A stretch of DNA of 64,000 nucleotides from Candidatus Scatonaster coprocaballi (GTDB taxonomy: Bacteria > Bacillota > Clostridia > Saccharofermentanales > Saccharofermentanaceae), in the NCBI GenBank assembly GCA_018064475.1, contig JAGHVD010000055.1, forward strand, positions 1 through 64,000. Direction: 5' to 3'. Position 1 is the stretch's first letter. Each line of letters begins with the position of its first letter. Below, piece after piece: positions 51,921 to 54,993 of this stretch. The notes below the pieces were generated by a model. It saw nothing but the letters and a program-made list of their open reading frames with translations, was not told the origin of the DNA and did no database searches. Position numbers and translations under genes: made by a program.

Positions 51921-53110
51921 AGCAGGAATCACGCTGGTGGCGACAAGTCAAGATCAAACTGACGAAGACATTCCGCAGTAAGTCGAAAGAAGAGAAGATC
52001 GACGGTGGCCGATTCATCGAGCCTTCCGGAGACTACGGCAAGGCGGAAGATCTGATTGACGTATGGTCGTTGAATAAGTCGGATTCCTCGGTGGGAGAAG
52101 TGCAATCGAAACGCTGGCCACGTATGGTAATCGCGGGTAGTGTATTTGTCGTCATCTTGCTGGTTATTTTCCTTGTGTTGCCACGTGTACTGCCGACTTT
52201 CTTTAAGAATACGGATATTGCTTTGTTTGTGGAGAAAGAACCTGAACTGATCTATGACGATACTTATCGTGTCGTGAAGGTAAGTGCCGCAAGCGTCATG
52301 GCAAAAGATGAGATCACCAGTCAGCGAATTACCCAGGTCCTCATGAATGAGCCGGTACTGCTGCTTGAAGAGAATTGCCAGAATGGATATGTTCGGGTTC
52401 GCACGATGGATGAGATCGAGGGATATGTGAAGGCAGAAGAACTGAACACAGACATGTCTTCTTGTGAACCCGATCTTCACCTTTACAAAGTTGTGGTCGC
52501 GGATATTTCGAAACGTGCGATGTCTCACGCCAGTAACGGTACACTGGTCTGTGAGGTGCCGATGAATACGGTACTGTATGCAGATGTAAAGCGTGACGGC
52601 GTATATCAGGTTCAGTTACCCAATGGAGAGGTCGGCTGGATCAGCAGTAGTGGTCTGATTGAACTGGATGTGAACGAACATGCCGAAGAAGTCGGTGTGC
52701 GTTACTTTGTCAGCTCGGCCAGAACGATGGTGCGAGTGACCTATCTGGAAGGCGGCCTGACCAAGAGAGGAATCTCAATAGAGGGGGTTGCTTATGTTGC
52801 TGCAGCCGTGAATGGTATTGATATTCCAAGAGAGATAGAGGGGCAGATCCAGTGTGGAACAGAGGTTGAACTGAAGTACGATGCAGTCACCTCGGAACTT
52901 CTAGTAGAGAGCATCCAGCCGGGTGATCTGGTGTTCCTGTCTGACCCATACCATCCGGAAAGTAAAGAACCATATGAGATGGCAATCTGTACCGATACAG
53001 GGGTCCTGCTTATGCGCTCTCCGACCGGTACATTCATTAATCTTCAGAATTTTGATGCAAGTTCAGCACTCGTCAGCCGCATTGTCGCAGTAAGAAGAAT
53101 CTTCTCGTAA
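51917..53110 (+). CDS. membrane-anchored SH3-like protein with catalytically dead NlpC/P60 domain
   Basis: 397 residues. One membrane helix at about 70-95, so the C-terminus faces outside. Two SH3-like units (about 120-175 and 190-250) resemble those of YkfC-type endopeptidases (SQRITQVLMNEPVLLLEE, VRTMDEIEGYVKAEEL; NGEVGWISSSGLIEL). The rest follows the NlpC/P60 fold: YLEGGLTKRGISIEGVAYV at 276-294, IDIPREIEGQIQCG, PGDLVF at 335-340. But the usual DCSG with the catalytic Cys reads SIEG here (287-290), and the His of HVGIY is Glu354. It is therefore a pseudo-enzyme, perhaps a peptidoglycan sensor or scaffold. ATGA overlap with the DnaI-like gene. Confidence 0.75.
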   Translation: MKQESRWWRQVKIKLTKTFRSKSKEEKIDGGRFIEPSGDYGKAEDLIDVWSLNKSDSSVGEVQSKRWPRMVIAGSVFVVILLVIFLVLPRVLPTFFKNTDIALFVEKEPELIYDDTYRVVKVSAASVMAKDEITSQRITQVLMNEPVLLLEENCQNGYVRVRTMDEIEGYVKAEELNTDMSSCEPDLHLYKVVVADISKRAMSHASNGTLVCEVPMNTVLYADVKRDGVYQVQLPNGEVGWISSSGLIELDVNEHAEEVGVRYFVSSARTMVRVTYLEGGLTKRGISIEGVAYVAAAVNGIDIPREIEGQIQCGTEVELKYDAVTSELLVESIQPGDLVFLSDPYHPESKEPYEMAICTDTGVLLMRSPTGTFINLQNFDASSALVSRIVAVRRIFS

Positions 53111-54340
53111 ACGCTCGATCAGGCTTGCATCCTCTTGGACTCTGGAAAGATAGTATTCATGACGAAGACTCCGAAAGCCGAGTGATTTTACCTGAGCATA
53201 AGTTATCTTATAATTCCCTTTGTAGTGACGTCCGGAGGACAGGTAGCGCACATATTGAAGGAGATATAGGTCCAGTTCCTGTAGACTTTGATCCGTCGTA
53301 ATGACGGGGAAGAACCACCTGCTCCATGTGAATAGATCCTCATTTTGCTCATTGTAGAATTTCTTGTTAAAAGTACGAATCAGGGCTTTGGCCGCACGTT
53401 CAAAATCGGCATCTTTGCGCGTCTTCCAACGGTAGAGGGCATGCGCCTTGCGGCGAATCTTGCCCTTCAGCTTATCCTTCGTGACGGAAGAGATATCGAC
53501 TTCGCCTTGGAAGTAACGAAAACCGAGAAACTCCCAGGCTTCACCGGGCGTGGAGATGGAGACTTTCTTGGGATTGATGTTAAGTCCGGCTTCGGCAATA
53601 TACGCATAGAAAGAATGGATATGCGATTCGAGGTCTTCCTGCGTTCGACTGAAGATGAGGATATCATCTGAATAGCGGAAGTAAGCGACGCCCTGTTCTT
53701 CGAAGAAACGATCCATATTCAGAAGATATACGTTGGCGAAGAACGGGGAGACTGGCGTTCCAGCCATAGCGCCACGATTTTCTTCTATGGACGTGCCATC
53801 CGATAACTGGGCCTCGTTGACCAGAAGCAGTTCCCGAAGGAACCAAAGAAGATTCGAGTCATCCGTGATCACGCGCTCCAAGACTTCTACCAGACGCTCT
53901 GCCGGAATGGAATTGAAATAGTTGGAAATATCCGCTTTGAAGCAATAAAGACGATCACGGTCCGGCTGCGCAAGGATGTCGAAGATCGCATTTCTTGCAG
54001 AACGAGACTTCCGGAAAGAGTAACAACGAGAAGAGAGTTTCTCGTCGTAGCGATAAAGTAGATGCGCGAGTCCCTTGAGAAAGAGATTCTCGTCGTCTGG
54101 AAAGGTATAGACGACACGCTTCTTGGCCGTGCCACTCTTATTAATGATTCGGCGCGAAGGCGCGGGAAAACAGTATTCGCCTTGTGCCAGCTTCTCGGCA
54201 ATCGGCAGATAACGTTGTTGCGCGACATACTCGGACAGCAGTTCACGTTCCTTCTTGCCGAGGTAATGGTTGGAAATCTTATATTCGAGAAATCCCTGCC
54301 AAGTTTCCGGTTGGCACAGAAGCTCCAATATGCCGGTCAT
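53063..54340 (-). CDS. reverse transcriptase (RNA-directed DNA polymerase) of uncertain class
   Basis: 425 residues. Polymerase motifs: A FKADISNYFNSIP (Asp137), B GAMAGTPVSPFFANVYL, C FRYSDDILIF (Asp225-226), D region AGLNINPKKV, E-like EFLGFRYFQG. The active site reads YSDD rather than YADD. No maturase X, endonuclease or integrase domain follows, so it is not a full group II intron protein. The conserved VTG of retron RTs is absent (VTK at that region). The C-terminal 70 residues carry evenly spaced RYLSSGRHYKGNY and LGFRSLRHEYY motifs outside the core. AAGGAGG lies 9 bases before the ATG. A structured segment lies just upstream; the 3' end overlaps the convergent gene by 48 bases. Confidence 0.9.
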   Translation of the reverse strand: MTGILELLCQPETWQGFLEYKISNHYLGKKERELLSEYVAQQRYLPIAEKLAQGEYCFPAPSRRIINKSGTAKKRVVYTFPDDENLFLKGLAHLLYRYDEKLSSRCYSFRKSRSARNAIFDILAQPDRDRLYCFKADISNYFNSIPAERLVEVLERVITDDSNLLWFLRELLLVNEAQLSDGTSIEENRGAMAGTPVSPFFANVYLLNMDRFFEEQGVAYFRYSDDILIFSRTQEDLESHIHSFYAYIAEAGLNINPKKVSISTPGEAWEFLGFRYFQGEVDISSVTKDKLKGKIRRKAHALYRWKTRKDADFERAAKALIRTFNKKFYNEQNEDLFTWSRWFFPVITTDQSLQELDLYLLQYVRYLSSGRHYKGNYKITYAQVKSLGFRSLRHEYYLSRVQEDASLIERLREDSSYCDNAADEC

Positions 54341-54371
54341 CTGACAGGGACCTCCTTCTTATGCAAAATAA

Positions 54372-54518
54372 AAGAAGAGAAACAGCTTTGAAACAAGCAT
54401 TGCTTGTGTTACCAGATCTGTACCCGAGCCGATCACCTGCAAGACCGGAGGTGAAAAATCACGTCCATTCTGGCACGGGCTGGATCCATCGCAGGTGCGT
54501 CCACGCATTTCTCTTCTT
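54372..54518 (-). ncRNA. candidate structured RNA linked to the reverse transcriptase
   Basis: On the minus strand AAGAAGAGAAA (54508-54518) and TTTCTCTTCTT (54372-54382) form a perfect 11-bp outer stem around 125 bases. Inside are a perfect 7-bp stem CACCTGC/GCAGGTG (54434-54440, 54491-54497) enclosing GTGA/TCAC with a 4-base loop (54451-54462), and ACAAGC/GCTTGT with a 3-base loop (54393-54407). No open reading frame of note crosses it. The layout (outer inverted repeat, hairpins, then RT gene about 30 bases on) is that of a retron msr-msd or another RT-templating RNA. Transcription and function are inferred. Confidence 0.5.
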
Positions 54519-54531
54519 CATATATCGTTCA

Positions 54532-54993
54532 TCAGAGATACTGATGGAGACGATCACGAATATAGCCGATCTCGTTCGGACTGTGAAGCAGGAAGTTGAT
54601 CAGTGTGTAGCCACGGGATGCGGCAAACTCCTTGGAGAAGCGGTATCCGCGGGTGGAACATGTATTCTTGTCACAGATCATGATCAGAAGTTTGACCTGA
54701 CCATTGGACGAAATGACGTACGCATATGGCATGGTGTTGGCACCATTATCACCCAGAGCGCGAGGAGATACTGCTTTGGCTACCTGATATCCGGCAAAAT
54801 CACTTGCCAAGACCTGGTCCAGTTTCTGGAATACGTTCAACTCAGGCATCTGCGGTGCCGGCGCAACAGGGATCTGCTGGGGTTGGACCTGCGGCTGTGG
54901 AGCCGAGGGTGCGGGAGTGTTGTATTGCGAATTGAAAGCATCTTTGACTGCATTGGCTGCTGCTTTGCCAACTAATCGTTCGAAAAAACCCAT
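54532..54993 (-). CDS. small protein of unknown function upstream of the reverse transcriptase
   Basis: 153 residues from the ATG at 54993, which has AGGAGG 6 bases upstream; the longer frame to 55059 lacks an RBS. The N-terminus (1-20) is an amphipathic helix MGFFERLVGKAAANAVKDAF, then a Pro/Gln-rich linker (about 26-50), then a compact C-terminal domain (55-153) with VKLLIMICDK and GYTLINFLLHSPNEIGYIRDRL. The strand-helix pattern of that domain faintly resembles small restriction-endonuclease-like folds, but I see no firm catalytic motif and assign no function. It ends 14 bases before the outer repeat of the structured segment. Confidence 0.7.
   Translation of the reverse strand: MGFFERLVGKAAANAVKDAFNSQYNTPAPSAPQPQVQPQQIPVAPAPQMPELNVFQKLDQVLASDFAGYQVAKAVSPRALGDNGANTMPYAYVISSNGQVKLLIMICDKNTCSTRGYRFSKEFAASRGYTLINFLLHSPNEIGYIRDRLHQYL

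What the first reader, a model, noticed from the sequence alone, without database searches (positions are those of the whole stretch)
53063..54518. Reverse transcriptase with an upstream RNA-like element: possible new retron-like or defence RT system
Seen: an RT with YSDD catalytic motif and no maturase, endonuclease or integrase domain. Directly 5' of it a perfect 11-bp inverted repeat (54372-54382, 54508-54518) encloses three further perfect stems, ending about 30 bases before the RT start. A chance 11-bp inverted match in 190 bases is unlikely (roughly 1 in 200 for random sequence, somewhat higher given the purine-rich arms). Known: retrons have an msr-msd RNA bounded by a1/a2 inverted repeats upstream of the RT, and several defence-associated RTs use an upstream structured RNA as template. 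Inferred: this locus makes cDNA from its own RNA. Against a classical retron: the VTG motif is absent.
Basis: partly seen in the sequence, partly recalled or inferred. Interest (0 to 1): 0.88.

Follow-up and report, generated by a model that had tools for sequence, protein, structure and literature searches.

The report
UG26 reverse transcriptase with template-like RNA
This is a bacterial enzyme that copies RNA into DNA, sitting beside its own folded small RNA and a third small protein; both main parts were already catalogued separately with unknown function, and here all 23 sampled species of one gut-bacterial genus keep the enzyme and RNA, at the same chromosomal spot wherever it could be seen, which is unusual for what is normally a patchy anti-virus system.

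Summary
The RT (53063-54340, minus strand) is a clear UG26 reverse transcriptase (PADLOC 519 bits; next family 128). The upstream element is Rfam RT-5 (71.7 bits; cut-off 45.7). It is not a retron and not a group II intron. A pseudoknot that Rfam leaves unpaired forms in 98-100% of cells with many compensatory changes. RT-5-like RNA lies upstream of the RT in 78 of 80 UG26 loci from several phyla. A third gene, with no family-library match and a predicted Vsr-like, acid-poor PD-(D/E)XK fold, precedes the RNA in 56 of 68 loci outside the genus. RT and RNA occur in 23/23 species of the host genus at one site, with RT dN/dS about 0.065; Cas1 is in 5/23. No UG26 was found on plasmids, phages or viral contigs. 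Most likely it works like DRT9/DRT10: an RT-RNA particle copying the 3' loop, primed by a C-terminal tyrosine. Tandem-repeat synthesis is plausible but failed my stricter control. Defence or housekeeping is open. No paper on this pairing was found in the library held.

The parts
53063..54340 (-). UG26 reverse transcriptase, 425 aa, YSDD active site, C-terminal LGFRSLRHEYY motif
   Evidence: PADLOC RT_UG26 519 bits; AlphaFold pLDDT 90.9; catalytic Asp pair kept in 124 of 124 aligned relatives
54372..54518 (-). RT-5 non-coding RNA, extended to its closing helix P1
   Evidence: Rfam RF03026 at 54379-54500; extension and structure
54508..54518 (-).
   Evidence: sequence; invariant in the genus, different but still paired in other lineages
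54372..54382 (-). P1 3' strand (UUUCUCUUCUU)
54497..54506 (-). P2 hairpin GCG-UGGA-CGC (variable length in homologues)
   Evidence: read from the alignments; not scored by the pair counts
54491..54496 (-). pseudoknot 5' strand ACCUGC
   Evidence: 98-100% of cells paired, compensatory changes at four of six pairs
54435..54440 (-). pseudoknot 3' strand GCAGGU in the loop of P5
54414..54487 (-). P3 (GGAUC 54483-54487 with 54414-54418; GCCCG 54476-54480 with 54422-54426; GCC 54472-54474 with 54428-54430), enclosing variable hairpin P4 (54447-54466) and P5 (54443-54446 with 54431-54434)
54393..54407 (-). P6 hairpin ACAAGC-AAU-GCUUGU, possible template boundary
   Evidence: compensatory changes across lineages; GCUUGU strand and all 3' of it identical in 23 of 23 genus members
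54383..54392 (-). predicted template loop UUCAAAGCUG; its UUC (54390-54392) recurs at 54379-54381 inside P1
   Evidence: UCAAA near the loop start in 69 of 90 RNAs; template role inferred by analogy with DRT9/DRT10
54532..54993 (-). partner protein, predicted PD-(D/E)XK (Vsr-like) fold, N-terminal MGFFERL
   Evidence: homologues precede RNA and RT in 56 of 68 loci outside the genus; fold Z 9.8 to I-Bth0305I
54559..54587 (-). promoter-like pair TTCACA-17-TATATT inside the partner gene's 3' end, about 40 nt upstream of the RNA
   Evidence: consensus match only

Best explanation
A three-part UG26 system: partner protein, RT-5 ncRNA, UG26 RT. SHOWN by sequence comparison: RNA and RT are a near-obligate pair; the RNA has closing helix P1, P2, a P5-loop pseudoknot, P3 and P6, with a conserved single-stranded loop (UUCAAA type) between P6 and P1; in this genus RT and RNA are inherited vertically at one chromosomal site under strong purifying selection. 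INFERRED: the RT binds the RNA as a ribonucleoprotein and copies the 3' loop as template, P6 setting the 5' template boundary; synthesis is primed by a C-terminal tyrosine of the RT itself (Y381 or the Y396/Y397 pair); the nascent end (GAA) may slip back to the UUC at the inner edge of P1 and be extended again, giving short-repeat single-stranded DNA, in this genus predicted (ACAGCTTTGAA)n. The partner, a probably inactive nuclease-fold protein, would act as sensor or effector where present. The likeliest role is antiviral, as in DRT2/9/10, here fixed in the core genome.
For: UG26 profile 519 bits, UG27 and Drt9 among the next families. RT-5 match. RNA upstream in 78 of 80 loci from Bacillota, Bacteroidota, Actinomycetota and others (median gap about 35 nt). 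Core helices 94.4% paired, 623 double changes against 174 in shuffles, pseudoknot 98-100% paired. [quoted passage not shown] PMC12483538). Y381 in 124 of 124 RTs and at least one Tyr of the 396/397 pair in 122 of 124; DRT9 is primed by RT tyrosines and DRT10 by a C-terminal serine or tyrosine. Genus: RT and RNA in 23/23, same gene neighbours wherever the contig allows, RT dN/dS median 0.065 beside dnaB-like 0.069, RT distances track dnaB-like and dnaI neighbours (r 0.80 and 0.78, 0 of 500 permutations).
Against: No experiment. The repeat pattern (3 nt or more) is in 85 of 90 RNAs, but cross-locus recombinants give 82 and repeats of 4 nt or more are rarer than in shuffles (13 against 33), so A and A' are not shown to co-vary. 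The RT model is structurally closest to a group II intron RT (Z 29.3) rather than DRT9 (22.8). No SLATT partner as in DRT10. Presence in every species of a genus, and neighbours without PADLOC hits, are atypical of defence systems. The partner is missing in 7 of 23 genus members, so it is not always needed.
Confidence: 0.55

Rival explanations
1. Housekeeping reverse transcriptase: in this genus the UG26 RT and RNA have been domesticated for a cellular task (for example making a fixed short DNA used as decoy, regulator or repair aid) and no longer serve defence.
For: 23/23 species at one site, vertical signal, dN/dS like its neighbours, Cas1 only 5/23, not found on plasmids, phages or viral contigs searched, last 27 nt of the RNA (P6 3' strand, loop, P1 3' strand) identical in 23/23, partner dispensable.
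Against: Elsewhere UG26 is patchy (16 of 391 class genomes) and spread over several phyla, as mobile defence genes are; all characterised relatives known to me are antiviral.
Confidence: 0.25
2. DRT9/DRT2-like templating without short tandem repeats: a single pass or another register of the RNA is copied, and the UUCAAA loop is a protein-binding site.
For: UUCAAA is conserved across phyla while A-A' matching is no better than a cross-locus control.
Against: Loop position and preceding stem-loop match DRT10's template region.
Confidence: 0.3
3. A retron: P1 is a1/a2, the RNA is msr-msd and the RT makes branched msDNA.
For: Inverted repeat flanking an RNA directly upstream of an RT.
Against: Retron models far below cut-off (62 against 235 bits); no retron family hit in Rfam; NAxxH string in only 3 of 126 relatives; internal stems are short and pseudoknotted rather than one long msd hairpin.
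Confidence: 0.04
4. Remnant of a group II intron with its RT.
For: Closest solved fold is a group II RT (Z 29.3); TIGR04416 119 bits.
Against: Below the curated cut-off of 300 bits; no intron RNA in the Rfam scan of the window; UG26 is one clade (SH-aLRT 99) outside group II RTs; RNA covaries and RT is under purifying selection.
Confidence: 0.02

Closest known systems
UG26 group of RTs (PADLOC RT_UG26) and Rfam RT-5 (RF03026)
   Same: The window RT and RNA are members of both by profile score.
   Different: Both are names without a function in the sources I could read; Rfam's model lacks P1 and leaves the pseudoknot strands unpaired; the partner gene and the genus-wide fixation were not found described in the papers held.
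DRT10 (UG17), PMC12632851
   Same: ncRNA before the RT, closing helix, stem-loop followed by a template-like loop, conserved C-terminal hydroxyl residue, small partner protein.
   Different: Partner is SLATT and lies between RNA and RT there; here it is a nuclease-fold protein upstream of the RNA. DRT10's template sequence varies, here it is conserved. A-B-A' is shown there and unproven here.
DRT9 (UG28), PMC12483538 and PMC12489045
   Same: Nearest non-UG26 RT in my small tree (support 91, long branch); conserved template-loop sequence.
   Different: Template is poly-U there; here the loop is mixed, UUCAAA type.
DRT2 (UG2), PMC12039810
   Same: Pseudoknotted ncRNA bound by a neighbouring RT.
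   Different: DRT2 copies a roughly 120-nt template by rolling circle to build a gene; this RNA is only about 147 nt in all.

Membership tests
UG26 RT | profile match of the RT | tested here: met
   519 bits, E 1.4e-156 over residues 4-400
Rfam RT-5 | covariance model score over gathering cut-off | tested here: met
   71.7 against 45.7 bits, full length
DRT (class 2 UG) defence system | upstream ncRNA co-inherited with the RT | tested here: met
   78 of 80 loci
DRT (class 2 UG) defence system | ncRNA is the template for cDNA | not testable with these tools
   only the position and conservation of the loop
DRT (class 2 UG) defence system | protein priming by a conserved Tyr/Ser | tested here: inconclusive
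   candidates Y381 (124/124) and Y396/397 pair (122/124)
DRT (class 2 UG) defence system | protects against phage | not testable with these tools
   needs an experiment
DRT10 | UG17 RT with SLATT partner | tested here: not met
   UG17 only 98 bits; the conserved partner has a different predicted fold
DRT10 | A-B-A' template pattern | tested here: inconclusive
   85 of 90, cross-locus control 82
Retron | retron RT family score | tested here: not met
   St85 62 of 235 bits, Ec67 21 of 450
Retron | inverted repeat (a1/a2) around an upstream RNA | tested here: met
   P1; not specific to retrons
Retron | branched msDNA | not testable with these tools
   needs an experiment
Group II intron | intron RNA flanking the RT | tested here: not met
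   no Rfam intron match in the window
Group II intron | RT inside the group II clade | tested here: not met
   UG26 separate clade, SH-aLRT 99

The most novel reading that the evidence does not exclude
A core-genome, non-defence reverse transcriptase with its own RNA that makes one fixed, conserved short-repeat DNA in all species of a bacterial genus: a telomerase-like activity turned to a cellular job.
Probability: 0.12. Interest if true: 0.93.

Novelty: new variant of a known kind. Interest (0 to 1): 0.6.

Why it matters
It joins two orphan catalogue entries (UG26 and RT-5) into one system with a third, unnamed protein family, gives a tested RNA structure, and points to a specific loop and tyrosines to mutate. 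If the predicted DNA product is real, it adds a case with a conserved template to the telomerase-like RTs. The genus-wide fixation makes it directly testable whether such RTs always serve defence.

Tried and rejected
Retron and group II intron readings (see membership). A-B-A' co-variation test: consistent but not above the cross-locus control. Pfam, NCBIfam, PADLOC and PHROGs for the partner: nothing convincing. Foldseek alone gave no partner match at E 0.001 or better; the Vsr-like reading rests on the second look by VIA-align (best Z 9.8, next 8.9 and 8.4, so modest). P1 could not be aligned column by column across lineages because its length differs, so it was tested by terminal complementarity, not by pair counts. 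The viral-contig scan found no UG26 but used only two short peptide patterns, so absence there is weak. UG17 and Drt9 profile searches mostly hit group II RTs; one true DRT9 (with an in-frame stop) and one true UG17 were found, so the tree has thin outgroups and long branches. The 2022 UG/Abi survey and the 2017 RNA-motif paper were not in the library, so earlier mention of the UG26 and RT-5 pairing, or of a partner, cannot be ruled out.

Full report
What is there. The minus-strand ORF 53063-54340 encodes a 425-aa reverse transcriptase with a YSDD active site and no other Pfam domain. PADLOC names it RT_UG26 at 519 bits; the next families are a general RT model at 128, UG27 at 121, Drt9 at 111, UG4 at 109 and UG17 (DRT10) at 98. 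The RNA inside it is Rfam RT-5, RF03026, 71.7 bits against a cut-off of 45.7, and it is the only Rfam match in 64 kb. The strand folds better than 200 of 200 shuffles, z -3.77.

RNA structure. In 23 species of the host genus, a second genus of the family and 78 of 80 loci fetched from a wider collection, the same RNA recurs. Pair counts on 85 diverse RNAs give 94.4% paired cells, 623 cells changed on both sides against 174 in shuffles, and a covariation score of 0.706 against 0.242; sliding the partner strand by one to three columns drops the score to 0.11 or less. The pseudoknot between ACCUGC (54491-54496) and the P5 loop GCAGGU (54435-54440), left unpaired in Rfam's model, is 98-100% paired with up to 20 compensatory cells per pair. 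That alignment was fitted to a model whose structure held P3, P5 and P6 but not the pseudoknot, so the pseudoknot is the least biased part. Many of the RNA ends are purine- or pyrimidine-rich, which explains the high cross-locus value.

RT and RNA belong together. 78 of 80 UG26 loci (the best 80 of at least 426 found) carry the RNA upstream on the same strand, usually about 35 nt away. In the family's second genus it can be separated from the RT by up to about 7 kb of ordinary genes (recognised by eye: a GH43-like enzyme, regulatory and membrane proteins) and both are still kept, so the RNA must be able to act in trans. UG26 is one clade (SH-aLRT 99) outside 20 group II RTs, with a single DRT9 next to it (91, long branches). 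The predicted structure is closest to group II RTs (Z 29.3), then G2L4, DGR and DRT9 (22.8), so fold does not decide kinship.

Third component. Just upstream of the RNA lies a 153-aa gene (54532-54993). Homologues sit in the same place in 56 of 68 loci outside the genus and in 16 of 23 genus members, with no second copy elsewhere in those genomes. The family has no convincing match in Pfam, NCBIfam, PADLOC or PHROGs. Its C-terminal domain is predicted with confidence (pLDDT mostly 96-98) in the alpha-beta-beta-beta-alpha-beta order of PD-(D/E)XK proteins and aligns best with Vsr-like nucleases, Z 9.8, 8.9 and 8.4. No acidic residue is conserved; the most conserved are N139, F133, Y143 and R147. 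I read it as a probably inactive nucleic-acid-binding or effector protein (inference).

Inheritance. RT and RNA are in all 23 sampled species of the genus. In every assembled locus the order PFOR, dnaB-like, dnaI, SH3 protein, RT, RNA, then trkH/trkA, AKR, L28 and rnf is kept as far as the contig allows, with occasional loss of the partner or of trkH/trkA (one genome, G001, has RT and RNA on two short contigs). Median RT dN/dS is 0.065, within the range of its neighbours, and RT distances track dnaB-like, dnaI and SH3 (r 0.80, 0.78, 0.72; 0 of 500 permutations as high). Cas1 is in 5 of 23. In the class sample 16 of 391 genomes have UG26, seven of them in the window's own family. Among 72,556 plasmids (5000-record limit reached, best hits group II RTs under 30% identity) and 50,697 phages there is no close match, and a pattern scan of viral contigs found none. 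No window neighbour tested has a PADLOC match.

Mechanism. DRT9 copies a U-rich loop, and DRT10 copies a loop after a stable stem, slipping back on a short repeat; both are protein-primed (PMC12483538; PMC12632851). The UG26 RNA has a loop at the equivalent place, UUCAAA type in most and UUUAA type in a minority, directly after hairpin P6. In the genus the last 27 nt, from the P6 3' strand to P1, are identical in 23 of 23 while other stems vary, which suggests selection on sequence. UUC recurs about 6-14 nt later in most RNAs, but the pattern is nearly as common when loop halves are swapped between loci (82 against 85 of 90) and repeats of 4 nt or more are fewer than in shuffles, so tandem-repeat synthesis is a hypothesis. 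Candidate priming tyrosines are Y381 (124 of 124) and the 396/397 pair (122 of 124).

How sure. RT and RNA one unit: 0.95. RNA is a template: 0.7. The 3' loop is the template: 0.55. Tandem repeats: 0.35. Tyrosine priming: 0.5. Defence role: 0.55; housekeeping: 0.25.

Limits. Loop type and partner presence go together (59 of 69 UUCAAA-type with partner, 12 of 14 UUUAA-type without), but the second type is largely one RT clade, so this is not independent evidence.

Noticed in passing
L078 6187-14807, also L079, L083, L089, L090, L091: In the second genus of the family the RT-5 RNA and UG26 RT are about 1 to 7 kb apart, with opposite-strand ordinary genes between them.
   Followed up: partly
L073-L077: Two further genera of the family have a divergent RNA (UUCACA or UUCAUA loop), four of five below Rfam's gathering score, with RTs about 35-37% identical to the window's.
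   Followed up: partly
L126, L128, L132: Bacteroidales loci with about 560-660 nt between RNA and RT, cause unknown.
   Followed up: no
L203 4100-5578: A DRT9 RT gene with one in-frame TAA; the stretch upstream has a U-run before a terminator-like hairpin.
   Followed up: no
window 54559-54587: Promoter-like pair inside the partner gene's 3' end, suggesting the RNA may have its own start.
   Followed up: no
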